From: Hypericibacter terrae
Lineage (GTDB): Bacteria; Pseudomonadota; Alphaproteobacteria; Dongiales; Dongiaceae
Assembly: GCF_008728855.1 (NCBI RefSeq)
Contig: NZ_CP042906.1
Coordinates: 2,666,001 to 2,730,000, forward strand
DNA: 64,000 bases
Direction: 5' to 3'
The position numbers and the translations under genes were made by a program. The notes under the pieces are model-generated. The model saw only the letters and a list, made by a program, of their open reading frames with translations, was not told the origin of the DNA and did no database searches. Within the stretch, counting starts at the first letter, position 1; the number at the start of each line of letters is the position of its first letter. Positions 6,099 through 45,860 of this stretch are shown piece after piece.

Positions 6099-6104
6099 GC
6101 ACAA

Positions 6105-6689: not shown

Positions 6690-6867
6690 CCTCTGCGCCT
6701 TGTTTCGCTTGCCGGAGCTGCCGCGACCACGGACGTTCCGGGTCCGGCCGCTTCGCGCTAAGATCGAGCGTCTGATCGGAAATACCGAAATTCCGACAGA
6801 GGCAGGGAAGGCGCCCGGCCGATAGGGCGGGCAGGGACGCGATGCGCGGTTTCAAGGAGTGCGAGCG

Positions 6868-7338
6868 ATGAGCGAGGGCGCGGGCGAAAGCCGGACGCTG
6901 AGCGCGATAGATGTGATGCGGGTCATGGAAATGATTCCGCATCGCTATCCCTTTCTGTTGATCGACAAGGCTGTGGAGCTGATCTCCGACGTCAGCGCCG
7001 TCGGGATCAAGAACGTCTCGATCAATGAAGGTTTTTTCCAGGGTCACTTCCAGCGCCAGCCGGTGATGCCGGGGGTGCTGATCATCGAGGCCATGGCGCA
7101 GACCGCCGCCGTGCTCGTGGCCTTCACGCTGGGCAAGGAAGCCGAAGGCAAGCTGGTCTATTTCATGTCGGTCGACGGCGCCCGTTTCCGGCGCCCGGTC
7201 GTTCCCGGCGACCAGATGCGCGTCCATGTCAGCAAGGATCGCAAGCGCGGCAACGTCTGGAAGTTCGTCGGCGAAGCCAAGGTCGACGGCAACGTCGTGG
7301 CGGAAGCCACCATCACCGCGATGATCAGGGACGATTGA
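6868..7338 (+). CDS. fabZ: 3-hydroxyacyl-[ACP] dehydratase FabZ
   Basis: Dehydrates 3-hydroxyacyl-ACP in type II fatty acid synthesis. The hot-dog fold is seen in [12 protein letters not shown] and [20 protein letters not shown]. The catalytic pair is H60 and E74, with the family spacing of 14. ATG 6868 is chosen because AAGGAG lies 8 nt upstream; a GTG at 6859 is less likely. The stop overlaps the lpxA start (TGATG). It competes with lipid A synthesis for hydroxymyristoyl-ACP, so its pairing with lpxA is functional as well as positional. Confidence 0.96.
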
Positions 7339-8141
7339 TGGGTGGCATTCATCCCACTGCCATCGTCGCCCCCGGGGCCCAAATCGCCGCCGACGTCAAG
7401 ATCGGCCCATATTGCGTCGTAGGCCCCGAGGTCGCACTCGGGCCGTCCGTCGAGCTGATGGCCCATGTGGTCGTCGAAGGCCGCACCCAGATCGGCGAGG
7501 GGACGGTCGTGCATCCTTTCGCGGCACTGGGCGGGGCGCCCCAGCATCTGCGCTATGCCGGCGAGCCGACGGAGCTGCGGATCGGGAGAAAATGCCGTAT
7601 CCGCGAATACGCGACCATCAACCGCGGAACCGCGATGGGCGGGGGGCGGACCACCGTCGGCGATGACGGATTTTTCATGACGGGCGTTCATGTCGCCCAT
7701 GACTGCCATGTCGGCCACCATGTCATCATGGCCAACCAGGCCACGCTGGGCGGGCATGTGAGCCTGGGCGATCATGTCGTGATCGGCGGGCTCACGGCGG
7801 TGCATCAGCATGTGCGGATCGGCAAGCACGCCATGATCGGCGGCATGACGCCTTGCGCCGCGGACGTGATTCCCTTCGGCATGGTCGTCGGCAATCCCGC
7901 CCATCTGTCGGGCCTCAACCTGGTCGGGCTGAAGCGGCGCGGCTTCGACCGTCAATCCATCCTCACCCTGCGCGCGGTCTACCGCAGTCTGTTCGAAGGG
8001 GCCGGCACCTTCGCCCGCCGCCTGGAGCGGACCATGACCGAATTCGCGGAGGAGCCTCTGGCGCAACCCGTGCTCGAGTTCGTTCGCGGCTGTCAGACCC
8101 GATCGCTGTGCAAGCCGGGCCAGCGCCATGGTCGCTACTGA
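7338..8141 (+). CDS. lpxA: UDP-N-acetylglucosamine O-acyltransferase LpxA
   Basis: First step of lipid A synthesis: transfers a 3-hydroxyacyl chain from ACP to UDP-GlcNAc. The protein is 267 aa with many left-handed beta-helix hexapeptide repeats ([IV]G-x4 pattern) from residue 3 to about 190 and a helical C-terminal tail (LVGLKRRGF). H121 in VAHDC matches the catalytic base of the family. The ATG overlaps the fabZ stop and the 3' end overlaps lpxI by 14 bp. Confidence 0.96.
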   Translation: MGGIHPTAIVAPGAQIAADVKIGPYCVVGPEVALGPSVELMAHVVVEGRTQIGEGTVVHPFAALGGAPQHLRYAGEPTELRIGRKCRIREYATINRGTAMGGGRTTVGDDGFFMTGVHVAHDCHVGHHVIMANQATLGGHVSLGDHVVIGGLTAVHQHVRIGKHAMIGGMTPCAADVIPFGMVVGNPAHLSGLNLVGLKRRGFDRQSILTLRAVYRSLFEGAGTFARRLERTMTEFAEEPLAQPVLEFVRGCQTRSLCKPGQRHGRY

Positions 8142-8964
8142 CCTCCCCACGCTGGGCATCATCGCCGGCGCCGGCTCGCTGCCGCGCCGCATCGCCGATC
8201 GATGTGCCGCGCAGGGACGCCACTTCCACCTGCTGCTGCTCGATGGCCATGCCGATCCCGCCCTCCATGCCGGGCTGACCTTCCAGACCGTCCGCCTGGG
8301 CGCCGCCGGCGAGATGTTCGAGAGAATGCGGGAGGCGGGGTGCCGGGAAGTGGTCTTTGCCGGGAAGGTGGAACGGCCTTCCTGGCGGGCGCTGCGGCCG
8401 GATTGGCGGGCCACCAAATTCATCGCCGAGTTCGCGTTCAGGGCCGACAAGGGCGACAACGCCCTCATGGCGGCGATCGTGGCGACCTGCGAGGCCGAAG
8501 GATTCAAGGTGCGCGCGCCGGCCGAGCTGCTCGGAGAATCCCAGATGCCACCGGGGCCGCTGGGCCGCCTGTCTCCCGACGGTCCTCAGCGTGACGATAT
8601 TCGGCTCGGCATCACGGTGGCGCGTGCGATCGGAAGGCTCGATGTCGGGCATGCGGTCGTGGTCCAGGCGGGGCTCGTGCTCGGGGTCGAGGCCGCCGAA
8701 GGCACCGACAGATTGATCGAACGCTGCGGCGCCCTGCGACGGGATGGGGTCGGCCCCATCCTGATCAAGCTACGGAAACCGCAACAGGAGATCCGCGCCG
8801 ACCCGCCGACCATCGGCCCGGCGACCGTTGCCTGCGCTGCCGCTGCCGGCTTTTCCGGCATCGCCATCGAGGCCGGCGGCACCCTCGTCATCGATCCCGA
8901 GGCCACCGTGGCCGACGCCGATCGCGCAGGCCTCTTTCTCCTGGCGGTCGAGGCGCCCGAGTGA
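8128..8964 (+). CDS. lpxI: UDP-2,3-diacylglucosamine diphosphatase LpxI (DUF1009)
   Basis: Hydrolyses UDP-2,3-diacylglucosamine to lipid X; the alphaproteobacterial replacement for LpxH. The N-terminal GIIAGAGSLPRRIAD is the family signature, the central region holds KGDNALMAAIV, and the C terminus has ATVACAAAAGFSGIAIEAGG. The length of 278 aa is typical. It overlaps lpxA by 14 bp and lpxB by 4 bp, so the three are co-translated. The overall fold is specific and no catalytic motif of LpxH type is seen. Confidence 0.92.
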   Translation: MVATDLPTLGIIAGAGSLPRRIADRCAAQGRHFHLLLLDGHADPALHAGLTFQTVRLGAAGEMFERMREAGCREVVFAGKVERPSWRALRPDWRATKFIAEFAFRADKGDNALMAAIVATCEAEGFKVRAPAELLGESQMPPGPLGRLSPDGPQRDDIRLGITVARAIGRLDVGHAVVVQAGLVLGVEAAEGTDRLIERCGALRRDGVGPILIKLRKPQQEIRADPPTIGPATVACAAAAGFSGIAIEAGGTLVIDPEATVADADRAGLFLLAVEAPE

Positions 8965-10154
8965 CGCCAGGCGCGGCCGCGCCGGCCCCGCGAGACCAGC
9001 GGCGCCCGGCTCGAATCTTTCTTGTCGCCGGGGAGCCCTCCGGCGATCGCCTGGGCGCCTCTCTCATGGCCGCGCTGCGCCGCAAGCTCGGCGATGTCGC
9101 GTTCTCCGGGATCGGTGGCGAGCACATGACAGGCGAGGGGCTGCAGAGTCTCTTCCCGATGCGCGAGTTGACTCTGATGGGCTTCGCCGAGGTGGTGCCG
9201 CATCTTCCGCGCTTGATGCGCAGGCTGCGCGAGACCGCGGCGAAGATCCGAGCGCTGCGGCCCGACCTCGTGGTGACCATCGACAGCCCGGGATTCAACG
9301 CCCGGCTCCTCGATCGGTTGCGCGGCAGCGGCATCGCGACCGCGCATTACGGGGCGCCGGCGGTCTGGGCCTGGCGACCGGGCCGCTTGCGTCATTGGGT
9401 CGGGCGGGTGGATCGCCTGCTGGCGATCCTGCCCTTCGAGCCCGCGATCTTCAGGGCCGCCGGCATCGATTGCCACTATGTCGGTCATCCGGTTCTCGAG
9501 CGGAGGACTGCGGGTCCATTGAGCAATCCGTTCCGGCAGCGCTTCCGGATTCCGCCCCAGGCGCCGCTGATCGGCCTCTTGCCGGGAAGCCGCAGAAGCG
9601 AGCTTCGCCACCTCCTGCCGGTGCTGAAAGAGGTGGCGGATCGCTTGCACCGGGCGGAGCCAGGGGCGCATTTCGTGATGCCCACCTTGCCGGGCCTGAT
9701 CGCGGAACTGAGCGCGGCGGTTGCTTCCTGGCCGCAACCGCCCCTGCTGGTGGGAGTCGAGCAAGACCGGTCCGACGCTTATGGAGCCTGCGACATCGCA
9801 CTGGCCGCTTCGGGCACGGTGACGCTGGAACTGGCGGCGGCGGGAACGCCGATGATCATCATCTATCGAAGCGGCCGCATCACGGCGGCGTTGATCCGCC
9901 GGATGGCGCTGGTCCAATTTGCCGGGCTTCCCAACCTGCTGCTGTCGCGGCCGCTCGTGCCCGAGTTGCTGCAAGAAGCCTGTGAACCTGACGGCCTCGT
10001 CAACCAGGCCTTGAGCCTGCTGCGCGATCCGCAAGCCCGGGCCGCGCAAAAGGCCGGGTTTCAGGAGATCATGGCGCAGTTGGCGATCGAAGGCAGTCCG
10101 AGCGACCGGGCTGCGACCCTCCTGGCCGAGCTGCTGGCGAGGCCGGCGGCCTGA
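8961..10154 (+). CDS. lpxB: Lipid-A-disaccharide synthase
   Basis: GT19 glycosyltransferase that joins lipid X and UDP-diacylglucosamine to give lipid A disaccharide at the inner membrane. Signatures include FLVAGEPSGDRLGA at about residues 20-33, GIGGEHM, IDSPGFN, VWAWRPGR, LLPGSRRSEL, and ALAASGTVTLELAAAGTPMIIIYR in the UDP-binding half. The start is the GTG overlapping the lpxI stop. It is the last gene of the envelope block. Confidence 0.96.
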   Translation: MTPGAAAPAPRDQRRPARIFLVAGEPSGDRLGASLMAALRRKLGDVAFSGIGGEHMTGEGLQSLFPMRELTLMGFAEVVPHLPRLMRRLRETAAKIRALRPDLVVTIDSPGFNARLLDRLRGSGIATAHYGAPAVWAWRPGRLRHWVGRVDRLLAILPFEPAIFRAAGIDCHYVGHPVLERRTAGPLSNPFRQRFRIPPQAPLIGLLPGSRRSELRHLLPVLKEVADRLHRAEPGAHFVMPTLPGLIAELSAAVASWPQPPLLVGVEQDRSDAYGACDIALAASGTVTLELAAAGTPMIIIYRSGRITAALIRRMALVQFAGLPNLLLSRPLVPELLQEACEPDGLVNQALSLLRDPQARAAQKAGFQEIMAQLAIEGSPSDRAATLLAELLARPAA

Positions 10155-10210
10155 CTGTAGGATGGAGCCCAACCCCGGACTCACGCGACTAGAGAGAGGC
10201 TACCGACGCG

Positions 10211-10627
10211 ATGACCACCGCCGCCCAAGCTGCAGAGCCGCGCTTCCTCCACACGATGCTGCGCGTGCTCGACCTCGACAAATCGATCGACTTCTATACC
10301 CGCCTGCTGGGCATGAAACTGCTGCGGCGCAAGGATTATCCCAGCGGCGAGTTCACCCTGGCCTTCGTGGGATTCGGCGAGGAGACCGAAACCGCTGTCA
10401 TCGAACTGACCCACAATTGGGGTCAGAAGGAGCCCTATCAGCTCGGCACCGCGTTCGGCCATCTGGCCATCGGTGTCGGCGATATCTACGGGACCTGCGA
10501 ACGGCTGGCGAAGGCGGGCGTGAAGATTCCGCGCCCGCCCGGCCCGATGAAACATGGCGGCAGTGTCATCGCCTTCATCGAGGATCCGGACGGCTACAAG
10601 ATCGAGCTCGTCGAGAAATCCCTCTAG
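10211..10627 (+). CDS. gloA: Lactoylglutathione lyase (glyoxalase I)
   Basis: Converts the methylglyoxal-glutathione hemithioacetal to S-lactoylglutathione. The 138-aa chain has two beta-alpha-beta-beta-beta modules. The four metal ligands are seen as H14 (FLHTMLRV), E65 (AVIELTHN), H84 (FGHLAIGV) and E132 (IELVE), with spacing like the Ni-dependent E. coli enzyme. It lies alone 56 bp after lpxB, so it may have its own promoter. Confidence 0.94.
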   Translation: MTTAAQAAEPRFLHTMLRVLDLDKSIDFYTRLLGMKLLRRKDYPSGEFTLAFVGFGEETETAVIELTHNWGQKEPYQLGTAFGHLAIGVGDIYGTCERLAKAGVKIPRPPGPMKHGGSVIAFIEDPDGYKIELVEKSL

Positions 10628-10705
10628 GGCAGCGGATCCGCTCGTGCTGACATCCCATCGCCCGGAAGGCACTGAGCGCCGGCGGCAATCGCGCGAGCCC
10701 GAAAC

Positions 10706-11824
10706 ATGGCGATGAGACCGACGAGGACCGAGTATGTGGTGGGGCTGACGCTCCTCGCGGTCCTCATCGTCGGCTGCTTCCTGGTGATGCGGCCTTTCCT
10801 GACGTCGCTGCTCTGGGCGGTCATCCTCAGCTATACGACCTGGCCGCTCTATCAGCGCCTGCTGCGGCGGCTGGGCGGGCGCGAATTCTGGGCGGCACTC
10901 CTGATGACGCTGCTGGTGGCAGCGGTCCTGGTGCTGCCGCTGGCGATCCTGGGCGCCACGCTGGCGCAGCATGTCGCCAGCGTCGCCGAAGTGGTCCGCG
11001 AGGTGCTGGCGCAGGGCGTGCCGGAGCCCGCACCCTGGGTCGACAAGATCCCGCTGATCTCGCAGGACGTCCGACGCTATTGGGAGGCTCTCGCCCAGGA
11101 GGGCTCCACCTACACCGCGGCGCTCGGCCCTTATATCGGCCAGGCGCGCCTCTGGGCGCTGCAGAGCGGCGCCACGCTGGGCCGCGGCGTGCTGGAACTG
11201 GCCTTGAGCGTCCTGGTCTGTTTCTTCGTCTATCGCGACGGCCAGTTCGCCGCCGAGCGCCTCCATGCCGCCGCCGGGCGCTTTGCCGGCGAGCGCGCGC
11301 GCCATCTGCTGAACGTCGCGGGCAGCACCACCAAGAGCGTCGTTTACGGAATCATCGGTACCGCGATCGCCCAGGCCGCCATGGCCTCGATCGGATTCTG
11401 GATCGCCGGCGTGCCCGGCACCCTGCTGCTGGGCTTCCTGACTTTCATTCTGTCGCTGGTTCCCGGCGGCCCACCCTTCGTCTGGGTCCCCGTGGCAGTC
11501 TGGCTGCTCTATACCGGCCAGCCCGGCTGGGCGCTCTTCATGGCGATCTGGGGCTTCATCAGCATCAGCGGCATCGACAATATCGTGCGGCCCTATCTGA
11601 TCAGCCGGGAGAGCCGCATGCCGCTCCTGCTGGTCTTCCTCGGCGTCATCGGCGGCGTGCTGGCCTTCGGCTTCATCGGTATCTTCCTGGGACCGACGCT
11701 GCTCGCGCTGGGCTTCACGCTGCTGATGGAATGGAGCATCGGCGGGCGCAAGCCCGTGGTCGCGACCCCTGCCGCCGCGCCGACGCCGCCCACCGACGAC
11801 AAATCGGGCGGCCCGCCGGTCTAG
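10706..11824 (+). CDS. AI-2E family membrane transporter/permease
   Basis: Multi-pass inner-membrane protein of the PF01594 family, which includes TqsA-like exporters and Na/H antiporter-like members; the substrate cannot be told from sequence. Two N-terminal membrane segments (residues 10-48) come first. A soluble helical part follows (about 85-160), then further segments. The conserved family end is seen as FLSLVPGGPP-like and GFIGIFLGPTLLALGFTLL. The tail is rich in Pro, Ala and Thr. Its TAG stop overlaps the TAG stop of the convergent kdsA-type gene in a shared CTAG. Confidence 0.85.
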   Translation: MAMRPTRTEYVVGLTLLAVLIVGCFLVMRPFLTSLLWAVILSYTTWPLYQRLLRRLGGREFWAALLMTLLVAAVLVLPLAILGATLAQHVASVAEVVREVLAQGVPEPAPWVDKIPLISQDVRRYWEALAQEGSTYTAALGPYIGQARLWALQSGATLGRGVLELALSVLVCFFVYRDGQFAAERLHAAAGRFAGERARHLLNVAGSTTKSVVYGIIGTAIAQAAMASIGFWIAGVPGTLLLGFLTFILSLVPGGPPFVWVPVAVWLLYTGQPGWALFMAIWGFISISGIDNIVRPYLISRESRMPLLLVFLGVIGGVLAFGFIGIFLGPTLLALGFTLLMEWSIGGRKPVVATPAAAPTPPTDDKSGGPPV

Positions 11825-12672
11825 GCCCGCACGGCCTGATGCACGGCCTTCAGGGTCGATAGCAATCTCGCCGCCGCATCGAGGGGCAGGCAGCTCGGCC
11901 CGTCGCACAGCGCCTTGTCGGGATCGGGATGGAATTCCAGGAACACGCCGTCGGCGCCCGCCGCCACGGCAGCCTTGGCAATGATCGGGACGCCCTCGCG
12001 CCGGCCGCCGGTCGAGCCCCCGCTGGTGCGCGGGTCGGCGCCCGGGAGCTGTACGGCATGTGTGGCGTCGATGGTCACCGGAACGCCCAGGCGCTGCATC
12101 TCGCCGATGGCCAGCATATCGACCACGAGATTGTTGTAGCCGAACGAACTGCCGCGCTCGCACAGGACGATGTCGAGATCGGGAGCCACCTCGCGCGCCT
12201 TCGTGATGATGTTCTTGCAATCCCACGGGGCCAGGAACTGCGCCTTCTTGACATGCAGCCAGCCGCCAGCCGCGGAAGTGGCTCTGGCGGCCGCGACAAC
12301 GAGGTCGGTCTGGCGGCAGAGGAAGGCAGGGATCTGCATCAGGTCCGCGATGGCCGCCACAGGCTCGGCCTGCTCGATCTCGTGGATGTCGGTGGCGATG
12401 GGGACGTTCAATCTGCGCTTGACCTCCGCCAGCATCGCCAACCCGTCTTTCAGTCCCGGGCCACGATAGCTCTTGATCGACGACCGGTTCGCCTTGTCGA
12501 AGCTGGCCTTGAACACGTAGGGCAGGCCGAGGTCGGCGGCGATCGCCTGCAGATGGCGTCCCACGCTCAGCGCCAGTTCGAGATTTTCCAGGACATTGAG
12601 GCCGGCGATGACGACCAGAGGCTGGCCGGTCCCGATCGAGAAATTCCACCGCTTCAGATGAGTGACGGCCAT
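11821..12672 (-). CDS. kdsA: 3-deoxy-8-phosphooctulonate synthase, E. coli-like (metal-independent type), copy 1
   Basis: Condenses phosphoenolpyruvate and arabinose 5-phosphate to KDO-8-phosphate. The 283-aa protein carries AGLNVLEN with N26. This is the asparagine found in metal-independent KdsA such as E. coli, where it replaces the metal-binding cysteine. The other blocks are also of E. coli type: VFKASFDKANRSS, YRGPGL, FHPDPDKALCDGPS. The start ATG has GGGAG 8 nt upstream. The second copy at 45027 is of the other class. There is no Kdo or capsule gene next to it; gltA is upstream on the same strand. Confidence 0.9.
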   Translation of the reverse strand: MAVTHLKRWNFSIGTGQPLVVIAGLNVLENLELALSVGRHLQAIAADLGLPYVFKASFDKANRSSIKSYRGPGLKDGLAMLAEVKRRLNVPIATDIHEIEQAEPVAAIADLMQIPAFLCRQTDLVVAAARATSAAGGWLHVKKAQFLAPWDCKNIITKAREVAPDLDIVLCERGSSFGYNNLVVDMLAIGEMQRLGVPVTIDATHAVQLPGADPRTSGGSTGGRREGVPIIAKAAVAAGADGVFLEFHPDPDKALCDGPSCLPLDAAARLLSTLKAVHQAVRA

Positions 12673-22339: not shown

Positions 22340-23140
22340 CTAGCTCTCGGTCAATTCGGGGGATCGGGTGCCGCTGACAGGACGGTGGCGCGCGCGGCTG
22401 CCGCGGAACCGCATCTGCTCGAGCTCGGCGGCGATGGCGTCGGCCTCGATCGTCGGCATGATGAGGGGCGAGGGGGGCTGCAGGGACTGGACCGGCCCGC
22501 CCATCACGATGACATTGCGCACGATCCGACCCGGCAGGTCGAGCAGCCGCACCGGAAATCCGGCCTCGGCCATGCGGCCGGCGATCCGGTCGGCATCGGC
22601 GTCGAGATCGTGGGCCACGAAGATATTGAGGAAGAGGCTGCCCGAAGCGGTGAGACGGCTTCGTGCCAGCTTGAAGAAGGCCGCCGAACAGAGATTGGCC
22701 GGAATCTTGTCGCCGGAGAAGGCGTCGACGACGATCGCGTCGTAGAGCTTCGGATTGTCTTCAAGGAAGCACTGGCCGTCGTCGACATGACAATCGATCT
22801 GCGGCGGAAGCCCGAAATATTCCTGGGCGAGGGCGATCGATTCCGGATTGATGTCGACGATCGTGACCCGCTGCCCGGTGGTGGTCAGCATCGTGCCCAG
22901 GGTGCCGCCGCCGCAGCCGATCATCAGCACGTCTTGCGCGCTTGTCTGGGCCACCAGCGCATGGAGCGCATGGATGTAGCCCGCCAGACTGATCCCGTTG
23001 GGATCCGCCTCGCTCTGATAGTGGTCGCCATGGCAATAGGCCACCGCGCCCGTGGCGCGGCTCCGCAGGATGGTGATTTCGCCGAACTCGGTGTTCTTCC
23101 TGGCAAGCGTGATCATGGGGTGGCCATTAATCCGGTTCAT
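22340..23140 (-). CDS. Spermidine synthase-like (SpeE-fold) methyltransferase-superfamily protein
   Basis: The 266-aa protein has the Rossmann-like aminopropyltransferase fold: VLMIGCGGGTLGTML (nucleotide-type binding loop), VTIVDINPESIALAQEYFG, DDGQCFL and YDAIVVDAFSGDKIP. True spermidine synthases carry DSSD or DSTD at the last motif; here it is DAFS, so the diamine-binding second Asp is missing. Polyamine synthesis is therefore doubtful and the substrate is unknown. An in-frame ATG 24 bp downstream is an alternative start. The TAG stop lies in a CTAG at the edge of the IS630 remnant region. It is divergent from the hyf-like operon. Confidence 0.7.
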   Translation of the reverse strand: MNRINGHPMITLARKNTEFGEITILRSRATGAVAYCHGDHYQSEADPNGISLAGYIHALHALVAQTSAQDVLMIGCGGGTLGTMLTTTGQRVTIVDINPESIALAQEYFGLPPQIDCHVDDGQCFLEDNPKLYDAIVVDAFSGDKIPANLCSAAFFKLARSRLTASGSLFLNIFVAHDLDADADRIAGRMAEAGFPVRLLDLPGRIVRNVIVMGGPVQSLQPPSPLIMPTIEADAIAAELEQMRFRGSRARHRPVSGTRSPELTES

Positions 23141-23453
23141 CCTTGATCCATATCATCCGCCAATTACGCCTTTGTTGGGATGCTGGCGGTCACAGGTACC
23201 TTGGGTGCTATCGTCGGGAGGGAATGAGTCATTCGTCGCCGATCGCCTGCCAATTGCTGGGCGCAACGCTGCCATCGCCGATCGTGACATCTCGGCCGCC
23301 CCTGTCTCCTGGACAGGAAACAACATATCATATATGTGAAATGCCACAGCCGATGCGTGGATTGACTGACGCGACCCAGTAGCAGGGGCCACCCCCTGAG
23401 CCGCCAAGACGCCCGCAAGTGACGAAGGCTCGGACAGAGTAATGGGAGTTGCG
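23141..23453. other. Intergenic region upstream of the hyf-like operon
   Basis: 313 bases between the divergent spermidine-synthase-like gene and hyfB without a convincing gene. It must hold both promoters. Two dyads are seen: CCTGTC-N5-GACAGG at 23301-23317 and ACATAT-N3-ATATGT at 23323-23337. No clear -24/-12 (sigma-54) promoter was recognised. Confidence 0.6.
23323..23337. promoter_or_regulatory. AT-rich dyad ACATAT-N3-ATATGT, possible operator
   Basis: Perfect 6-bp inverted arms about 117 bp upstream of the hyfB start in otherwise G+C-rich DNA. The size and symmetry suit a dimeric regulator site, but no regulator gene sits beside it. This is inference only. Confidence 0.3.
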
Positions 23454-25457
23454 ATGCCGCCCGTCATGGGGCTGGGCTGTGTGGCTGTCCTGATGGGCGT
23501 CGCCGTTCTGGCCGTCATTCTCGGCCGCTCGAAAGCGGCCACGCCGCTCGTCTATGGCGCGTGCCTGGTCGCCTCGGGCCTTGCCTGCGCCGCTGCTCTG
23601 TTCCAGATCGCCGTGGAACCCTGGGCGACGGTGCTGCCGCTGGGGCTCCCCTGGGTCGGTGCGCATTTCCGCATCGACGCGCTCGCCGCTTTCTTCCTGA
23701 TCGTCGTCAATCTCGGGGGCGCCGCCGCCAGTCTCTATTCGATCGGCTATGGGCGCCACGAGTTGGTACCCCTGCGGGTCCTCCCTTTCTTCCCGGCCTT
23801 TCTGGCCGGCATGAACCTTGTGGTGATGGCCGATGACGCCTTCACCTTCCTCCTTGCCTGGGAGTTCATGTCATTGACCTCCTGGGCCCTGGTCATGGCC
23901 CATCATCACGACCCGGAGAACCGGCGCGCCGGCGTCATCTATCTGGTGATGGCCAGCTTCGGCACGCTGCTTCTGCTGCTGGCCTTCGGTTTGCTGGCGG
24001 GGCCGGACGGCCACTACGCCTTCGCGTCGATCCGGGAGGGCCTGCGGTCGCCGCTGATCGCCGCGCTCGTCCTGATTCTCGCGCTCGTCGGCACCGGCTC
24101 GAAGGCCGGGCTCGTTCCGCTTCATGTCTGGCTGCCGCTGGCCCATCCGGCGGCGCCCACGCCGGTCTCCGCGCTGATGAGCGGCGTCATGACCAAGGTC
24201 GCGATCTATGGCTTCCTGCGCATCGCGCTCGACCTCCTCGGACCTCCGGCATGGTGGTGGAGCCTGCCGGTCATCGCGCTGGGCGGCGTGAGCGCGGCCA
24301 TGGGCGTGCTCTATGCGCTGATGCAGCAGGATCTGAAGCGCCTGCTGGCCTACAGCACGGTCGAGAACATCGGGATCATCTTCATCGGCGTCGGGCTCGC
24401 GATCGCCTTCCGCGCCAACAACATGGGCTGGGCGGCCGCGCTGGCCCTGACCGCAGCGCTGCTCCACGTCCTCAACCACATGCTCTTCAAGAGCCTGCTC
24501 TTCTTCGGCGCCGGCGCGGTCCTGTCGGCAACCGGCCTGCGCGATATCGAACAGCTCGGCGGCCTGATCCGGCGAATGCCCGCGACCAGTTTCACCTTCC
24601 TGGTGGGAGCGGCCGCGATCGCGGCATTGCCGCCGCTCAACGGCTTCGTCTCCGAGTGGCTGACCTTCCAGGCCATTCTCTTGAGTCCCCAGATTCCGCA
24701 ATGGGGCCTCAAGCTCATCGTTCCCGCCGTCGGCGCCCTCTTGGCATTGTCGGCGACACTGGCAGGCGCCTGTTTCGTCCGCGCCTTCGGCATCGTCTTT
24801 CTCGGCCGCCCGCGTTCGCCGGCGGCCGAAGCCGCCACCGAGGTCGATCGTTTCTCGCTCGTCGCCATGGCAACGCTGGCGGGGCTCTGTCTCCTGACGG
24901 GCGTGCTGCCGGGGCTGGTGATCGACGGTATTGCTCCCGCCGTCAAACTGCTCGTGGGCGAGGTCATGCCGCGGCAGCTCGGGGTGGCCTGGCTCTCGAT
25001 CGTGCCGATCGCCGAGAGCCGGAGCTCCTATAACGGCCTGCTGGTGTTCCTGTTCGTCGCCCTATCGACCGGGATCGCGGTCCTGGGAATCCACCGGCTG
25101 GCGTCGCGCGCGGTCCGGCGTTCCGCGATCTGGGATTGCGGCTTCCCGATCACGAGCGCCAACACCCAATACAGCGCCAGCAGCTTCGCGCAGCCCATTC
25201 GCCGGGTCTTCGGTTCGATCGTCTTCCAGGCCCGCGAGCGGATCGACATGCCGCCGCCCGGCGACGCGCGCCCGGCGCGGTTTCAGGTGGAGATCAAGGA
25301 TCTCATCTGGCAGTTCCTCTACGCGCCTGTCGGCGACGCCGTCTGGGAAGCTGCAAACCGGCTCAATCGCCTGCAGTTTCTGACGATCCGCCGCTATCTC
25401 AGCCTGGTCTTCCTGGCGCTCATCGTCCTGTTGCTGGTGGTCGCGATATGGACGTGA
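23454..25457 (+). CDS. hyfB: Hydrogenase-4 component B-like (NuoL/M-type antiporter subunit)
   Basis: Large membrane subunit homologous to HyfB/HycC and to the complex I proton-pumping subunits. It is 667 aa from ATG 23454, chosen because GGGAG lies 5 nt upstream; ATG 23442 is an alternative. Antiporter hallmarks are the Glu in LLAWEFMSLTSW, the Lys in GTGSKAGLVPLHVWLP and the block HPAAPTPVSALMSGVMTKV. A C-terminal extension (SFAQPIRRVFG and a final membrane helix) is typical of HyfB rather than NuoM. It overlaps hyfC by 10 bp. Confidence 0.9.
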   Translation: MPPVMGLGCVAVLMGVAVLAVILGRSKAATPLVYGACLVASGLACAAALFQIAVEPWATVLPLGLPWVGAHFRIDALAAFFLIVVNLGGAAASLYSIGYGRHELVPLRVLPFFPAFLAGMNLVVMADDAFTFLLAWEFMSLTSWALVMAHHHDPENRRAGVIYLVMASFGTLLLLLAFGLLAGPDGHYAFASIREGLRSPLIAALVLILALVGTGSKAGLVPLHVWLPLAHPAAPTPVSALMSGVMTKVAIYGFLRIALDLLGPPAWWWSLPVIALGGVSAAMGVLYALMQQDLKRLLAYSTVENIGIIFIGVGLAIAFRANNMGWAAALALTAALLHVLNHMLFKSLLFFGAGAVLSATGLRDIEQLGGLIRRMPATSFTFLVGAAAIAALPPLNGFVSEWLTFQAILLSPQIPQWGLKLIVPAVGALLALSATLAGACFVRAFGIVFLGRPRSPAAEAATEVDRFSLVAMATLAGLCLLTGVLPGLVIDGIAPAVKLLVGEVMPRQLGVAWLSIVPIAESRSSYNGLLVFLFVALSTGIAVLGIHRLASRAVRRSAIWDCGFPITSANTQYSASSFAQPIRRVFGSIVFQARERIDMPPPGDARPARFQVEIKDLIWQFLYAPVGDAVWEAANRLNRLQFLTIRRYLSLVFLALIVLLLVVAIWT

Positions 25458-26404
25458 TCGCCGACCTCACCGTGCAGGGCGTGCAGATGGCGCTGGTCCT
25501 GCTGCTGGCGCCGCTGCTCACGGGTTTCGTGCGGAAGCTGAAGGCGCATCTGGTTCGCCGCCAGGGTCCCTCGGTCTTCCAGCCCTACCGCGATCTGTTG
25601 CGCCTCCTGCGCAAGGAGGTGGTGCTGGCCGAGAATGCGTCATGGCTGTTCCGCGTGGCGCCTTACCTGATTTTCGCCGCCACCTGGGTCGCCGCTGCCC
25701 TGGTGCCGACCTTCGCCACCGGCCTCGTCTTCAGCTGGTCGGCCGATCTAATCGCGATCATCGCGCTCCTCGGCAGCGCCCGTTTCTTCCTGGCGCTCGC
25801 GGGTCTCGATGTCGGCACCAGCTTCGGCGGGATCGGCTCGAGCCGCGAGATGCTGATCGGCACGCTCGCCGAGCCGGCGATGATCATGATCGTCTTTACG
25901 CTCGCCCTCATCGCCGGCTCGACCCAGCTGGCGACGATGGCCGACTACATGCTGTCGCCCGCGGTGGGCCTTCGCGTCTCGCTCGGACTGTCGTTGATCG
26001 CGCTCATCATGGTCGCGATCGCCGAGAACGCCCGCATCCCGGTCGACAATCCGGCCACCCATCTCGAGCTCACCATGGTTCACGAGGCGATGGTGCTGGA
26101 ATATTCCGGCCGGCATCTGGCCATGATCGAGCTCGCGGCGGCCTTGAAGCTTCAGCTCTACATCTCGCTCATCGCCTGCCTGTTCGCACCCTGGGGGCTG
26201 GCGCGGGACGGAGGAGGGATTGCGGCCTACGCGGTCGGCATCGCCTTTTTCATCGTGAAGCTCGCCGTCGGCGGCCTGCTCCTGGCCCTGTTCGAGACGG
26301 CCATCGCCAAGATGCGGGTGTTCCGCGTTCCGGAGTTCCTCGGCGCTGCCCTCATGCTGGGTCTTCTCGGCACGCTGCTGCTGTTCGTTTCGAAAGGCCT
26401 CTAG
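25448..26404 (+). CDS. hyfC: Hydrogenase-4 component C-like (NuoH-type membrane anchor)
   Basis: 318-aa NuoH/HycD homologue that links the membrane arm to the peripheral redox subunits. Hallmarks are GPSVFQPYRDLLRLLRKE near the N terminus, SFGGIGSSREM, and ENARIPVDNPATHLELTMVHEAM, which holds the acidic residues of the quinone/proton-channel region. Eight or so membrane segments are seen. Its start overlaps the hyfB stop, and its stop TAG is immediately followed by the hyfE ATG with no gap. Confidence 0.92.
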   Translation: MDVIADLTVQGVQMALVLLLAPLLTGFVRKLKAHLVRRQGPSVFQPYRDLLRLLRKEVVLAENASWLFRVAPYLIFAATWVAAALVPTFATGLVFSWSADLIAIIALLGSARFFLALAGLDVGTSFGGIGSSREMLIGTLAEPAMIMIVFTLALIAGSTQLATMADYMLSPAVGLRVSLGLSLIALIMVAIAENARIPVDNPATHLELTMVHEAMVLEYSGRHLAMIELAAALKLQLYISLIACLFAPWGLARDGGGIAAYAVGIAFFIVKLAVGGLLLALFETAIAKMRVFRVPEFLGAALMLGLLGTLLLFVSKGL

Positions 26405-27067
26405 ATGGGCACCTTATCCTTCGACGTCGCTCATCTGCTGGCCGGTGGCCTGGTTCTGGTGAGCTTCATGATGCTCTACCAGGACCGTCTTTACGCGCTG
26501 CTGAATGTCTTCGCACTGCACGCCGTCGTGCTCGCCCTTTCGGTGGCCTGGCAGGCCTATGTCCAGCATGCGCCGCATCTCTATGTGACGGCCGCGATCG
26601 CGCTGCTGTTCAAGGGAATGGTCATCCCTTTCGCCCTGCATCGCATGGTGATACGCCTCGGCATCCATCGCGAGATCGAGACCGTGGTCGGCGTCGGCAT
26701 GACCATGCTCGCCGGGATGGGGCTGGTGGCGCTGTCGATGGTGGTCATGCTGCGGGTGACGCCCACCGCCGACCCGCTCGCGCGCGAGGATCTGGCCTTT
26801 GCGCTCTCCGTGCTGCTGCTGGGCCTTCTCATCATGGTGACCCGGCGCAACGCGGTCAGCCAGGTCGTGGGGTTCATGTCGCTCGAGAACGGGCTCGTTC
26901 TGGCGGCGACCGGCGCCAAGGGCATGCCGCTCGTGGTCGAGATCAGCGTCGCATTCTCGATCCTGATCGCCTTCATCGTCATCGGTATCTTCCTGTTCCG
27001 CATCCGCGAGCGGTTCGACACCGTGGACATCGGCGCACTCGACGATTTCCGAGGCGAGCGCCGATGA
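26405..27067 (+). CDS. hyfE: Hydrogenase-4 component E-like (NuoK-type) membrane subunit
   Basis: Small membrane protein of 220 aa with about seven hydrophobic segments and the NuoK-like GFMSLENGLVLAATG motif. The conserved membrane Glu (SLENG) lies in that motif. The C terminus is charged (RIRERFDTVDIGALDD), as in HyfE. It starts directly after hyfC and ends in an ATGA overlap with hyfF. HyfE homologues are specific to Hyf-type rather than Hyc-type complexes. Confidence 0.88.
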   Translation: MGTLSFDVAHLLAGGLVLVSFMMLYQDRLYALLNVFALHAVVLALSVAWQAYVQHAPHLYVTAAIALLFKGMVIPFALHRMVIRLGIHREIETVVGVGMTMLAGMGLVALSMVVMLRVTPTADPLAREDLAFALSVLLLGLLIMVTRRNAVSQVVGFMSLENGLVLAATGAKGMPLVVEISVAFSILIAFIVIGIFLFRIRERFDTVDIGALDDFRGERR

Positions 27068-28512
27068 CTTCGCTTCCGTTCGACGTGGTCACCGCGATCC
27101 TCCTGATACCGATCTGTTCGGCAGGCCTGCTGGCCCTGTTGCCGGGCTATCGGCTTTCCGCCCTCCTCAACGTCCTGGCCAGCCTGCTCACGTTCCTGGC
27201 TGCTTTGCTTCTGTTCACGAACCGGCCCGAGGCCAATCAGTACGTTTTCATCGACGATCTCAACATCGTCTTCATCGTCCTCAACACCTTCGTCGGCTTC
27301 ACCACCAGCGTCTTCAGCGCCAGCTACATCGCCCACGAGCTGGAGACCGGCCGGTTGACGCCGACCTATCTCCGATTCTACCACGCGATCTACCAAGTCA
27401 TGATGTTCGGCATGAACCTGGCGCTGCTCTCGAACAATCTTGGCCTCATGTGGGTGGCCGTGGAGCTGGCGACCCTCAGCACCGTCATCATGGTCGGCAT
27501 CTACCGGACGCACGAAGCGCTCGAGGCCGCCTGGAAATATTTCATTCTCGGCAGCGTCGGCATCGCGCTGGCACTGTTCGGCACGATCCTGGTCTATATG
27601 GCCGCGCGGCCCGTGGTGGGCGAGGGGATCGACGCCATGGTCTGGACGGTCGTGATCGAGCGGGTCGCGAAGTTCGATCCGGCGCTGCTCAATGTCGCCT
27701 TCATCTTCCTTCTGCTCGGCTATGGCACGAAGGTCGGCCTGGCGCCGTTGCATGCCTGGCTGCCCGATGCGCATGCGGAAGGCCCCACGCCGATCTCGGC
27801 CGTGCTGTCGGGCCTGCTCCTCAATGTCGCGCTCTATGCGGTGCTGCGCTTCAAGATGCTGCTCGCCGCCAACCCCGACGCGATCAACCCCGGTCCCCTG
27901 ATGATCACCATGGGGCTGACCTCGCTCGTCTTCGCCGCCTTCATGCTCTATCGCCGGCGCGACATCAAACGCATGTTCGCCTATTCTTCGATCGAGCATA
28001 TGGGCATCATCGCCTTCGCCTTCGGGATGGGTGGGCCGCTCGCCAACTTCGCCGGGCTCCTGCATATGACCATGCACAGCCTCACCAAATCGGCGATCTT
28101 CTTCGCCGTCGGCCATATCGCCCAGGTCAAGGGCACGCAGAAGATCGCCGATATTCGCGGGCTCACGGAGAGCCACCCGGTCCTCGGCTGGGGGCTGGTG
28201 CTCGGCGTGGTGGCTATCGCCGGCATGCCGCCGCTCGGGATCTTCATGAGCGAGTTCCTGGTGGTGAGCTCGACCTTCGCCCGCGAGCCGTTGCTCGCCA
28301 TACCGCTGGTCCTGGGGCTGCTGGTCGCCTTCGGCGCCCTGTTCCTGCGGCTGGGCGGCATCGCCTTCGGCCCGCCGACGGGGAGCCTTGCGCCGGTCCA
28401 GGCCTCCTATGTTCCCATGTTTGCGCATCTGACCCTGGTCTGCATCGCCGGCGTCTATCTGCCGGCCCCGCTGGTCGTCTGGTTCCAGCATGTCGCGCAT
28501 CTGCTGGGATAG
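27064..28512 (+). CDS. hyfF: Hydrogenase-4 component F-like (NuoN/M-type antiporter subunit)
   Basis: 482-aa proton-antiporter-type membrane protein, the second such pump in the operon. Signatures are VAVELATLSTVIMVG with the membrane Glu, LGYGTKVGLAPLHAWLPDAHAEGPTPISAVLSG with the Lys and the loop helix, and RRRDIKRMFAYSSIEHMG. The ATG overlaps the hyfE stop. HyfD, a third antiporter-like protein in E. coli hyf, has no counterpart here. Confidence 0.92.
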   Translation: MTSLPFDVVTAILLIPICSAGLLALLPGYRLSALLNVLASLLTFLAALLLFTNRPEANQYVFIDDLNIVFIVLNTFVGFTTSVFSASYIAHELETGRLTPTYLRFYHAIYQVMMFGMNLALLSNNLGLMWVAVELATLSTVIMVGIYRTHEALEAAWKYFILGSVGIALALFGTILVYMAARPVVGEGIDAMVWTVVIERVAKFDPALLNVAFIFLLLGYGTKVGLAPLHAWLPDAHAEGPTPISAVLSGLLLNVALYAVLRFKMLLAANPDAINPGPLMITMGLTSLVFAAFMLYRRRDIKRMFAYSSIEHMGIIAFAFGMGGPLANFAGLLHMTMHSLTKSAIFFAVGHIAQVKGTQKIADIRGLTESHPVLGWGLVLGVVAIAGMPPLGIFMSEFLVVSSTFAREPLLAIPLVLGLLVAFGALFLRLGGIAFGPPTGSLAPVQASYVPMFAHLTLVCIAGVYLPAPLVVWFQHVAHLLG

Positions 28513-28527
28513 AGAGGAGGGGCCGCC

Positions 28528-30048
28528 ATGCCGACACTTGCCGAGCTGATGCAACGGGGCCGCGCCGTGCCGGGCGCTCGCCCCTGGCCACGCGTCCAGG
28601 TCGATGCGGAGCTGTGGCAGACAGCCGGGCAGTTGCTCGCCGAAGGGCATTGGACCTTGCTCGGTCTTTGGGCCGACAGCGGCGCCGTCCATATGGCTTT
28701 GCTCGCGGAGCCGCAGGCCGGTCCCGGAATTCTGAGTCTCGATTGCGCGAACGGAAAATTTCCGTCGATCGGCCGGCTGCATCCGCCGACGGTACGCCTC
28801 GAACGGACGATCCAGGATTTGTACGGGCTCGAGGCGGAAGGTGCCTCGGATTCGCGACCCTGGCTGGATCATGGGAGCTGGGGCGTCCGCCATCCGCTCG
28901 GCGAATGGACCCCATCTCCTGTTGCGCCCATGCCCGCCTACAATTTCCTGGAGGCGGAGGGCGAAGGGCTTCACCGGATCGCCGTGGGCCCGGTCCATGC
29001 CAGCGTCATCGAGCCCGGTCATTTCCGCTTCACCGTGAATGGCGAGGCCGTCGTCCGGCTGGAGGAACGGCTGGGCTACGCCCACAAGGGCATCGACGGG
29101 CTGATGCGGGAGGCGGGCCTGGAGCAGGCCGTCAAGCTCGCGGGCCGGACGTCCGGCGACAGCACGGTGGCCTATGCCTTGGCCTTCTCGCGCGCGGCGG
29201 AAACGGCGCTGCAGATCGAGGTTCCCGCAAGGGCCGTCTGGCTCCGGGCCCTGATGGCCGAGATGGAGCGCCTCGCCAATCACTTCGGCGATATCGGCGC
29301 CATCTGCAACGACGCCTCCTTCGTCGTGATGCATGCGCAATGCGGCACCTTGCGCGAGCGTGTGTTGCGCGCGGCGGAGGCCTGCTTCGGCCACCGTCTG
29401 ATGCGGGACCGCATCCTGCCGGGCGGCGTCGCAGCCGATCTTGGCGCAGACGGGATCGCCGCCTTGCGCGGCCTTCTGCAGGAGGCGCGCCGGCATTTCC
29501 CCACCCTGATCAAGCTCTACGACAACACCGCCTCGCTGCAGGACCGCACCGTCGGCACCGGCCGGCTCACGCCCGAACTGGCGCGCCAGTTCGGCTGCGG
29601 CGGCTATGTCGGCCGGGCGTCGGGCCGGGACTTCGACGCCCGCCGCGCGTTCCCCTATGCGCCCTACGACCAGCTGCAATTCGACGTGCGGGTCGCGACC
29701 GAAGGCGATGTGAACGCCCGCGTCTGGATCCGAATCTGGGAGGTGGAGCAAAGCCTGGCGCTGGTCGAGCAGATCCTCGACCGCCTGCCCGCGGGCCCGG
29801 TCCGCGTCGGCCTCAACCAGGGTTCAGGCAACGCCACCGAGGGCATGGCGATCGTCGAGGGGTTCCGGGGCGATATCCTCGTCTGGCTGCGCCTCGACGC
29901 CGACGGCAAGGTGGCGCGCTGCCATATGCGCGATCCGTCCTGGTTCCAATGGCCGGTGCTGGAGGCCGCGATCGAGGGCAACATCGTCGCCGACTTCCCG
30001 CTCTGCAATAAGTCCTTCAACTGCTCCTATTCCGGCCAGGACCTCTAG
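28528..30048 (+). CDS. hyfG: Hydrogenase-4 component G-like large subunit lacking Ni-binding cysteines
   Basis: 506-aa fusion of a NuoC-like (30-kDa) part (about residues 1-130) and a NuoD/[NiFe]-large-subunit part. [NiFe] enzymes have RxCGxC; here residues 207-212 read RTSGDS, with serine for both cysteines. The C-terminal CxxC aligns with C499-S-Y-S502, and the chain ends four residues later (GQDL), so no cleavable maturation tail exists. The protein cannot hold the NiFe site in the usual way and resembles Ehr/complex I subunits, possibly with a quinone pocket. A strong GGAGGGG ribosome site precedes it. Confidence 0.88.
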   Translation: MPTLAELMQRGRAVPGARPWPRVQVDAELWQTAGQLLAEGHWTLLGLWADSGAVHMALLAEPQAGPGILSLDCANGKFPSIGRLHPPTVRLERTIQDLYGLEAEGASDSRPWLDHGSWGVRHPLGEWTPSPVAPMPAYNFLEAEGEGLHRIAVGPVHASVIEPGHFRFTVNGEAVVRLEERLGYAHKGIDGLMREAGLEQAVKLAGRTSGDSTVAYALAFSRAAETALQIEVPARAVWLRALMAEMERLANHFGDIGAICNDASFVVMHAQCGTLRERVLRAAEACFGHRLMRDRILPGGVAADLGADGIAALRGLLQEARRHFPTLIKLYDNTASLQDRTVGTGRLTPELARQFGCGGYVGRASGRDFDARRAFPYAPYDQLQFDVRVATEGDVNARVWIRIWEVEQSLALVEQILDRLPAGPVRVGLNQGSGNATEGMAIVEGFRGDILVWLRLDADGKVARCHMRDPSWFQWPVLEAAIEGNIVADFPLCNKSFNCSYSGQDL

Positions 30049-30058
30049 GGAGACCGGC

Positions 30059-30580
30059 ATGCACAGGATCCTGTTCGACAATCTCGCGAAGGGCACGCTG
30101 ACCGAGCCGCCGCCCGCGCCGGACGAGAGCGCCCTGGCCGAGCTGGCGGCGGCGCTCGAACGCAACGCGCGCCGCAAGCTGGGGCGCAGCCTTTCGATCC
30201 GACAGGTCGATGCGGGCTCCTGCAATGGCTGCGAGCTGGAGATCAACGCCCTCGGCAACCCATTCTACGATCTTGAGCGCTTCGGCCTGCGCTTCGTCGC
30301 CTCGCCGCGGCATGCGGACGTGCTGCTGGTCACGGGACCCGTGACCCGGAACATGCAGATCGCCCTCGAACGCACCTACCGCGCGACGCCCGACCCGAAA
30401 TGGGTCGTGGCCGCGGGCGATTGCGCGCTCGATGGCGGCATGTTCGCGGGGAGCTATGCGTGCCTGGGCGGGGTATCGGCCGCCATTCCGGTCGACCTGC
30501 ATATCCGGGGCTGTCCGCCGAGCCCGACGCAGCTTCTCAAAGGATTGCTGGCGCTGCTGCAGGTGGACAAGGCCCGGTGA
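30059..30580 (+). CDS. hyfI: Hydrogenase-4 component I-like small subunit (NuoB type, N2 cluster)
   Basis: 173-aa NuoB/HycG homologue. All four ligands of the N2-type [4Fe-4S] cluster are present: C55 and C58 (GSCNGCELE), C122 (AAGDCALDG) and C152 (RGCPPSP). Redox function therefore seems retained even though the partner large subunit lacks Ni ligands. It is the last gene of the six-gene operon. No HyfH/NuoI-type or HyfA-type ferredoxin subunit, maturation protease or hyp gene is found in the window. Confidence 0.93.
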   Translation: MHRILFDNLAKGTLTEPPPAPDESALAELAAALERNARRKLGRSLSIRQVDAGSCNGCELEINALGNPFYDLERFGLRFVASPRHADVLLVTGPVTRNMQIALERTYRATPDPKWVVAAGDCALDGGMFAGSYACLGGVSAAIPVDLHIRGCPPSPTQLLKGLLALLQVDKAR

Positions 30581-44996: not shown

Positions 44997-45026
44997 AGAA
45001 CGAAACGAATGATCGGACACACCCCC

Positions 45027-45860
45027 ATGACCCAGCAACGCCACGTTCATGTCGGCCAGGTAACCTTCGGCAACGACAAGCCCCTGTCGCTGATCGCGGG
45101 GCCCTGCCAGCTCGAATCCCGCGCCCATGCGCATGAGATGTGCCAGGCGCTGTCGGAGCTGACGGCCAGGCTCGGCATCGGCCTCGTCTACAAGACCTCG
45201 TTCGACAAGGCCAACCGCACCAGCCTCAAGGGCGAGCGGGGCTTGGGCATGGCGAAGAGCCTGCCGATCATGGCCGAGCTGCGCGAGACCTATGGCTGCC
45301 CGATCCTCACCGACATCCATTCGGTCGAGCAATGCGAACCGGTCGCCGAAGCGGTGGACATCCTGCAGATCCCGGCCTTCCTCTGCCGCCAGACCGACCT
45401 GCTGCTGGCCGCGGCCGAGACCGGCAAGACCATCAATGTGAAGAAGGGCCAGTTCCTGGCGCCCTGGGACATGAAGAACGTCGTGGCCAAGATCGCCTCG
45501 ACCGGCAACCAGAACATCCTCCAGACCGAGCGCGGCGCTTCCTTCGGCTACAACACGCTGGTCTCCGACATGCGCAGCCTGCCGATCATGGCCGAGAGCG
45601 GCTATCCGGTCGTGTTCGACGCCACCCATTCGGTGCAGCAGCCGGGCGGGCAGGGGACCTCGACGGGCGGACAGCGCGAGTTCGTGCCGGTGCTGGCGCG
45701 CGCGGCGGTCGCGGTCGGCGTCGCCGGCGTCTTCATGGAGACCCACCAGGACCCCGACCATGCGCCCTCGGACGGTCCCAACATGGTGCATTTGAAGCAG
45801 ATGCCGGAACTGCTACGGCGGCTGATGGCGTTCGACAAGGTCGCCAAGGCCGCGGCTTGA
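45027..45860 (+). CDS. kdsA: 3-deoxy-8-phosphooctulonate synthase, metal-dependent type, copy 2
   Basis: Same reaction as the gene at 11821 but of the other class. AGPCQLES holds C27, the metal-binding cysteine. The remaining metal ligands are expected in DATHSVQQ (His), METHQDPD (Glu) and the DGPN region (Asp). It is 277 aa from ATG 45027; ATG 45009, in frame, is possible, and neither has a good ribosome site. Its place after pyrG is the usual alphaproteobacterial kdsA position, so this is probably the ancestral copy for lipopolysaccharide Kdo. Confidence 0.95.

What the first reader, a model, noticed from the sequence alone, without database searches (positions are those of the whole stretch)
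23454..30580. Six-gene Hyf-like operon that is not a hydrogenase: probable Ehr-type ion-pumping complex with unknown redox partner
Seen: hyfB, C, E, F, G, I homologues are packed with overlaps or short gaps. The large subunit has RTSGDS (residues 207-212) where [NiFe] enzymes have RxCGxC, C499-S-Y-S502 where they have CxxC, and no cleavable C-terminal tail. The small subunit keeps all four N2-cluster cysteines (55, 58, 122, 152). No HyfH/NuoI or HyfA ferredoxin subunit, HyfD, maturation protease, hyp or formate dehydrogenase gene is in the window. Known: complexes with this pattern are called energy-converting-hydrogenase-related (Ehr), between group 4 hydrogenases and complex I. Inference: the N2 cluster hands electrons to or from an unknown partner such as a quinone or a separately encoded protein, coupled to ion pumping by two antiporter-type subunits.
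Basis: partly seen in the sequence, partly recalled or inferred. Interest (0 to 1): 0.78.

Follow-up and report, generated by a model that had tools for sequence, protein, structure and literature searches.

The report
Nickel-free relative of a hydrogen-making pump
This bacterium carries an intact six-gene membrane complex that looks like an ion-pumping hydrogenase but has lost the nickel site, a known but still unexplained kind of complex that probably pumps ions using some other electron-carrying molecule.

Summary
The operon is real: hyfB-C-E-F-G-I lie on one strand at 23442/23454-30580, with overlaps or gaps of 15 bases at most. It is not a hydrogenase. None of the four nickel-ligand cysteines survives in HyfG; searches of the genome found no other [NiFe] large subunit, no HycI-type protease and no HypD. 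HyfI keeps its four cluster cysteines (76 of 76 sequences) and the pump residues are intact. One correction: the C-terminal ligand positions are S500 and G503, not C499/S502. A new aspartate, D211, is present in all 151 loci counted, but not in two strongly diverged copies. The same six genes are in print for Cupriavidus, Nitrospira and Acidithiobacillus, and such complexes are called Ehr, function unknown: a new member of a known kind. New leads: a small XRE regulator upstream in many relatives, and a spermidine-synthase-like enzyme beside the operon here; in genomes with the operon, close copies of both lie mostly beside it. Formate and CO dehydrogenases are not general partners. Best mechanism: a redox-driven ion pump whose single iron-sulphur cluster exchanges electrons with a small molecule, perhaps a quinone, in the former nickel pocket. 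Substrate, direction and ion are inferred.

The parts
23442..25457 (+). hyfB: antiporter-like pump subunit (671 aa; the start at 23454 gives 667 aa)
   Evidence: NCBIfam PRK06521 hydrogenase 4 subunit B 868.6 bits, cut-off 667; E141, K221, K299, K350, E405 invariant in 67 sequences
25448..26404 (+). hyfC: NuoH/HycD-like membrane subunit (318 aa)
   Evidence: Pfam NADHdh 9.5e-39; 33% identical to HycD of two Hyc/Hyf loci, no BLAST hit at E<=0.01 to the genome's own nuo locus; E134, E142, E193 invariant
26405..27067 (+). hyfE: small membrane subunit (220 aa)
   Evidence: NCBIfam hydrogenase 4 membrane subunit 81 bits, below its cut-off 136
27064..28512 (+). hyfF: second antiporter-like pump subunit (482 aa)
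   Evidence: NCBIfam PRK06458 hydrogenase 4 subunit F 899.5 bits, cut-off 533; E134, K223, K264, E397 invariant in 75 sequences
28528..30048 (+). hyfG: NuoC+NuoD / HycE-like large subunit without Ni ligands (506 aa)
29146..29163 (+). HyfG residues 207-212, RTSGDS, in place of RxCGxC; Asp at 211 in 151 of 151 loci counted (diverged copies L161, L162 were dropped before the count and have Val there)
30007..30045 (+). HyfG residues 494-506, NKSFNCSYSGQDL: mature C-terminus in place of the Ni-binding CxxC and the cleaved tail
   Evidence: 148 of 151 loci match the motif; of the other three, two look cut short and one reads KSFNPSHAGCDL
30059..30580 (+). hyfI: NuoB/HycG-like small subunit with one [4Fe-4S] (N2-type) site (173 aa)
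   Evidence: Pfam Oxidored_q6 7e-33; C55, C58, C122, C152 invariant in 76 of 76
22340..23140 (-). divergent gene for a spermidine-synthase-like SAM-dependent enzyme (266 aa), candidate accessory protein
   Evidence: NF037959 50.7 bits over its cut-off 40, PRK04457 79.7 bits below its cut-off 304; only match in the genome at E<=1e-8; relatives within about 1.5 kb of the operon in 18 of 149 loci, this one included

Best explanation
The operon encodes a six-subunit, nickel-free energy-converting-hydrogenase-related (Ehr) complex that works like a small complex I. One [4Fe-4S] cluster in HyfI faces the pocket in HyfG that holds the NiFe centre in hydrogenases. There a small redox molecule, most likely a quinone (my estimate about one in two, given the rest), is reduced or oxidised. 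Because no NuoI/HyfH-type subunit is encoded, a soluble carrier must hand electrons straight to (or take them from) HyfI. The reaction drives charge shifts through the acidic residues of HyfC into two antiporter-type channels, HyfF and HyfB, which move ions. Shown: composition, order, loss of all Ni ligands, absence of NiFe maturation genes, intact cluster and pump residues, conserved new pocket residues. Inferred: the substrate, the electron carrier, the direction, the ion and the pumping.
For: Ni ligands replaced by S209, S212, S500, G503; no HypD, HycI-type protease or other NiFe large subunit in the genome and no HypD in 36 of 61 genomes with the operon. HyfI cysteines invariant in 76 of 76. 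R207, G210, D211, D262, N498, Y501, G503, D505 invariant in 77 of 77 HyfG sequences, so the site seems kept for a purpose. D262 aligns with an Asp of the genome's NuoD and with Phe in HycE; from recall this is an Asp of the quinone pocket of complex I. Charged residues of the pump subunits invariant. A paralogous complex beside the first in Variovorax has a ferredoxin domain fused to the HyfI-like subunit, which suggests where electrons enter in that relative. Formate dehydrogenase-like genes were not found in 12 of 61 genomes; a CO dehydrogenase over the cut-off in only 6 of 64.
Against: The quinone-pocket Tyr of complex I is Gly or Ala here and the pocket His is not found in register (residue roles recalled). 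The beta1-beta2 loop is of hydrogenase type (GPVHASVIEPGHF) and the subunits resemble Hyc/Hyf more than complex I. The pocket residues are not universal: two loci of 151 have Ala for G210, one reads His at the Y501 position, and the diverged copies L161/L162 lose D211 and most of the C-terminal motif. No electron donor gene is linked. The C-terminus and residues 146-185 of the model are of low confidence, and no coordinates were available to me, so the pocket itself was not inspected.
Confidence: 0.6

Rival explanations
1. Same architecture, but the pocket reduces a non-quinone small molecule directly at the iron-sulphur cluster, as proposed for the archaeal sulphane-sulphur reductase MBS/Mbx (recalled), with electrons from ferredoxin.
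For: 6u8y_L, listed as NADH dehydrogenase subunit D and from recall the MBS large subunit, is among the solved relatives (105 bits); the quinone ligands of complex I are not conserved while a different polar set is; in a relative the HyfI-like subunit carries a ferredoxin domain.
Against: HycE scores far higher (211.9 bits) than 6u8y_L. I noted no sulphur gene among the recurrent neighbours, but most of those clusters were not annotated.
Confidence: 0.22
2. The complex is the membrane half of a formate- or CO-driven machine whose dehydrogenase is encoded elsewhere (FHL-like, with a quinone or other acceptor in place of protons).
For: The genome has two formate dehydrogenase alpha matches over the cut-off, at C1:160384 and C1:3950647, and a CO dehydrogenase large subunit over the cut-off at C1:2893528. 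Geobacter Ehr proteins are more abundant with formate than with hydrogen-containing conditions (passages of PMC7894505). An FDH-Ehr complex was proposed for lineages sibling to Cyanobacteria (passages of PMC6349859).
Against: 12 of 61 genomes with the operon have no match to the formate dehydrogenase model even at E<=1e-30; only 6 of 64 have a CO dehydrogenase over the cut-off. Of three small genomes with a diverged version, G042 has a single molybdopterin oxidoreductase, about 3 kb from nuoD and so probably NuoG; G294 and G362 have one more each, of unknown kind. No fdh or cox gene was found in the window.
Confidence: 0.1
3. Not a redox enzyme: an ion or CO2/bicarbonate transporter that kept the redox arm as a scaffold or sensor.
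For: Electron donor and acceptor are both unidentified; antiporter-type subunits serve in DAB and Mrp systems without redox chemistry (recalled).
Against: Four cluster cysteines invariant in 76 of 76; pocket residues invariant in 77 of 77.
Confidence: 0.06
4. A decaying or cryptic [NiFe] hydrogenase, or a sequencing artefact.
For: High similarity to hydrogenase-4 subunits.
Against: Open frames throughout; the same kind of substitutions in 151 loci; no NiFe maturation genes found.
Confidence: 0.02

Closest known systems
Six-gene hyfBCEFGI operons of Cupriavidus metallidurans CH34 and C. necator H16 (PMC2864759), Nitrospira (PMC5596200) and Acidithiobacillus ferrooxidans (PMC7735108); Nitrospira complexes of this sort are called Ehr in PMC10284858 (passages seen of all four)
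   Same: Same six gene names; the Cupriavidus CH34 copy (L118) is in my set, with HyfG 47% identical over the matched part. Judged non-hydrogenase in PMC7735108 and, as Ehr, in PMC10284858
   Different: Nitrospira and Acidithiobacillus sequences were not compared here; PMC5596200 calls the operon a putative group 4 hydrogenase. L118 also has a spermidine-synthase-like neighbour, by eye of the Burkholderiales subgroup
E. coli formate hydrogenlyase / hydrogenase 4 (HycE 7z0s, Hyf)
   Same: Best sequence and structural match of HyfG; all six subunits match those of a Hyf-type locus, L163
   Different: Lacks all four Ni ligands and the cleaved tail; no HycF/HyfH, HycB/HyfA, HyfD or linked formate dehydrogenase
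Respiratory complex I (Nuo)
   Same: NuoB, NuoC/D, NuoH and NuoL/M/N homologues; one pocket Asp shared with NuoD
   Different: No NuoE/F/G/I in the operon; pocket Tyr and His absent; the genome has a separate nuo locus, its nuoD about 61 kb from hyfG
Mycobacterium tuberculosis Rv0082-Rv0087 hyc locus (passages of PMC3087520, PMC6901956)
   Same: Six genes annotated as two oxidoreductases, hycD, hycP, hycQ, hycE; from recall this is the I-B-C-E-F-G order of Rhodococcus L123, whose HyfG has the Ni-free motifs
   Different: Sequence not compared here; papers call it a formate hydrogenlyase or putative [NiFe] hydrogenase; other regulator
Geobacter sulfurreducens Ehr (GSU0739-45)
   Same: Named Ech-hydrogenase-related (passages of PMC7894505, PMC8691401)
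   Different: Sequence not compared here

Membership tests
[quoted passage not shown]
   S209, S212, S500, G503 at the ligand positions
[quoted passage not shown]
   four Cys invariant in 76 of 76
[quoted passage not shown]
[quoted passage not shown]
   the defining paper (Marreiros 2013; recalled, its reference seen in PMC12361115) was not read and its sequences were not used; the homologues fetched here form one clade apart from HycE and NuoD
[quoted passage not shown]
   needs biochemistry
Group 4 [NiFe] hydrogenase | RxCGxC and DPCxxC ligands | tested here: not met
   none of 151 loci has both cysteines of the first motif
Group 4 [NiFe] hydrogenase | Hyp maturation and endopeptidase genes in the genome | tested here: not met
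   no HypD, no PF01750
Complex I (NDH-1) | NADH module and NuoI in the operon | tested here: not met
   six genes only; no ferredoxin motif in the window
Complex I (NDH-1) | Quinone-pocket Tyr and His of NuoD (recalled) | tested here: not met
   Gly/Ala at the Tyr position; no His in register
MBS/Mbx sulphane-sulphur reductase | Cluster-catalysed sulphane-sulphur reduction | not testable with these tools
   only a sequence match to 6u8y_L

The most novel reading that the evidence does not exclude
The Ehr complex is the core of a larger self-regulated module: its own XRE repressor family (with an operator built on TGATGTTT / AAACATCA, inferred from word enrichment only) and a dedicated spermidine-synthase-like SAM enzyme that makes or modifies the molecule turned over in the former NiFe pocket. 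The unknown partner of Ehr would then be an alkylated (aminopropyl- or methyl-) redox compound rather than ordinary ubiquinone.
Probability: 0.12. Interest if true: 0.78.

Novelty: new member of a known kind. Interest (0 to 1): 0.46.

Why it matters
Their redox partner is an open question. The conserved pocket residues, the absence of NiFe maturation, the evidence against formate and CO dehydrogenase as general partners, and two gene families that travel with the operon make that question testable in culturable, harmless hosts.

Tried and rejected
Degenerate hydrogenase: rejected.

Ni ligands in another register: C499 is the only cysteine in the C-terminal motif itself (C493 lies just before it) and is not conserved; four of 151 loci have a Cys at 209 and two at 212, none both.

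Formate dehydrogenase or CO dehydrogenase as general partner: not supported. The 49 of 61 genomes that match the formate dehydrogenase model at E<=1e-30 (31 over the cut-off) probably include other molybdopterin enzymes, so 49 is an upper bound.

FNR-type regulation: a one-mismatch box TTGATCCATATCAT lies at 23143 between the two divergent genes, but regions upstream of the operon have such a box (one mismatch allowed) in only 3 of 127 loci; shuffles give a mean of 1.78, random stretches 2.12, and 3.1% of 954 regions upstream of other genes have one. No exact box was found in the 127.

Electron-transfer gene as conserved neighbour: I identified none among the larger neighbour clusters; most clusters were not annotated.

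Literature: and one search returned mostly unrelated papers (EHR also means health record). A link of spermidine synthase with hyf was looked for: 27 papers hold two or more of the four terms; none of the 15 listed holds 'spermidine synthase'; the other 12 were not seen. Locus tags of the C. necator and C. metallidurans operons led only to PMC2864759.

Limits: homologue counts include related species and a few duplicates (before I dropped L027, L032 and L161-L164; before one search also L160 and L114). Gene calls around the loci came from a simple script and include some antisense frames.
Full report
OBSERVATION. The six genes were re-read from the DNA. Coordinates agree with the finding except that hyfB may start at 23442 rather than 23454. 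The proteins match the hydrogenase-4 subunit models for HyfB and HyfF well over their cut-offs and the NuoH, NuoD and NuoB families for HyfC, HyfG and HyfI. The operon stands between a divergent spermidine-synthase-like gene (22340-23140) and lexA, moeA, moaC, trpC. The window holds no ferredoxin motif in any frame.

CONSERVED ANATOMY. In 77 HyfG sequences R207, G210, D211, D262, N498, Y501, G503 and D505 never vary; C499 does. In the wider set two loci have Ala for G210 and one reads His where Y501 stands. The four HyfI cysteines never vary in 76. In HyfB and HyfF several Glu and Lys residues of the antiporter type never vary, nor do E134, E142 and E193 of HyfC. D262 aligns with an Asp of the genome's own NuoD and with Phe in HycE. 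From recall, this Asp lies in the quinone pocket of complex I, whose Tyr and His are missing here.

DISTRIBUTION. In 397 Pseudomonadota genomes the HyfG model scored over 440 bits in 55 (counted from the list; the next scores are about 270 bits and lower). Relatives also occur on plasmids (84 records with a tblastn match at 1e-30, some of them probably true hydrogenases). Gene order B-C-E-F-G-I holds in 127 of 151 loci; 23 show a shorter set and one, in Rhodococcus, reads I-B-C-E-F-G. In an unrooted tree of 57 large subunits the 48 homologues form a clade (95/99) apart from two HycE and seven NuoD; long branches are present and the tool warns about them.

TRAVELLING COMPANIONS. (a) A small XRE regulator on the same strand within 300 bases upstream of hyfB in 40 of 123 loci that have hyfB and at least 1 kb upstream. 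I searched 21 of the 61 genomes for it: 29 matches at E<=1e-10; of the 22 at E<=1e-25, 19 lie within about 10 kb of hyfG; of the seven weaker ones, one does (positions compared by hand). Six of the 21 genomes have none, the window's genome among them. Upstream of this regulator the word TGATGTTT is found in 15 of 41 regions against 3 of 317 control regions (one of the best of many words tested, and loci are related). In the 61 genomes there are 24 matches at E<=1e-8, in 18 genomes; 10 lie within about 2 kb of the operon and 14 do not; of the 8 best (E<=1e-20) 6 do, in four families (positions compared by hand). In 397 Pseudomonadota genomes 11 have a match at E<=1e-15 and 5 at E<=1e-30; four of these five have the operon, each with the gene beside it, and one (G354) has no operon. 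So close relatives of the protein are mostly Ehr neighbours, though most Ehr operons lack it.

PARTNER. Formate dehydrogenase alpha: 49 of 61 genomes match at E<=1e-30, 31 over the cut-off, 12 not at all; the window's genome has two over the cut-off. CO dehydrogenase large subunit over the cut-off: 6 of 64, the window's genome among them; 25 of 64 match at E<=1e-100. Of three small genomes with a diverged copy of the operon, G042 has one molybdopterin oxidoreductase, about 3 kb from nuoD, and G294 and G362 have two. So neither dehydrogenase is a general partner, though either could serve in this organism. In Variovorax and in genome G447 a second, paralogous large subunit lies close to the first, with the related motifs GDS and NKSFDLSYCGNDL; in Variovorax, where I looked, the gene after it encodes a HyfI-like subunit with an N-terminal ferredoxin domain. 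That supports electron entry through HyfI from a soluble carrier.

MECHANISM. I take the complex to be a redox-driven ion pump in which the HyfI cluster exchanges electrons with a small molecule in the former NiFe pocket, and HyfC, HyfF and HyfB turn this into ion movement. Only the parts list, the conservation and the absence of NiFe are shown. A quinone is my first choice, because such hosts respire with quinones (general knowledge, not tested) and D262 is kept; the missing Tyr and His and the hydrogenase-type loop speak against it, and an MBS-like direct reduction at the cluster is the main rival.

KNOWN OR NEW. The same six genes were noted in Cupriavidus as 'very unlikely' to serve lithotrophy (passages of PMC2864759), in Nitrospira as hyfBCEFGI (PMC5596200), and in Acidithiobacillus as non-hydrogenase (PMC7735108); comammox Nitrospira complexes are called Ehr of unknown function (PMC10284858), and ammonia-oxidising archaea are reported to have Ehr (PMC10432482). 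I saw passages, not the whole of these papers. So this is a new member of a known kind. I found no paper that links the spermidine-synthase-like gene to it (15 of 27 listed).

Noticed in passing
L119:1-3416 (Variovorax plasmid) and L160:6762-8348 (G447): A second, paralogous Ehr large subunit near the first; in Variovorax it is followed by a NuoB-like subunit fused to a two-cluster ferredoxin domain (not looked for in G447).
   Followed up: partly
L161 and L162 (G042, G362), around 5300-12300 on the minus strand: Extremely fast-evolving copies of what looks like the whole six-gene operon in small genomes (2.0-2.5 Mb) of one family; motif RINAVDS and a C-terminus ending TGVDL; they fall inside the Ehr clade on a very long branch.
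   Followed up: partly
L123:5990-13278 (Rhodococcus plasmid): Order I-B-C-E-F-G; from recall the same as M. tuberculosis Rv0082-Rv0087, which papers call a formate hydrogenlyase or putative [NiFe] hydrogenase locus; Rhodococcus HyfG has the Ni-free motifs.
   Followed up: partly
L139, L034, L045 and other loci, just upstream of hyfB: A small XRE regulator family whose close copies lie mostly beside Ehr operons, with an enriched TGATGTTT / AAACATCA word upstream.
   Followed up: partly
window 23143-23156: One-mismatch FNR-type box between the two divergent genes; not enriched across loci.
   Followed up: yes
G000:C1:2893528-2895840: The window's genome has a CO dehydrogenase large subunit over the cut-off of TIGR02416 (1472 bits), about 200 kb from the operon.
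   Followed up: no
window 11821-12672 and 45009-45860: Two genes of the DAHP/KDO8P synthase family in one window; the first is KDO8P synthase over the cut-off, the second was only matched to PF00793.
   Followed up: no
L120, L121, L187 (Burkholderiales plasmids): HPr-type phosphocarrier, YoaK, CopG-type regulator and spermidine-synthase-like genes recur around the operon.
   Followed up: no
L047: A MAG labelled Terriglobia carries the operon with HyfG 67% identical to the window's; transfer or misbinned contig.
   Followed up: no
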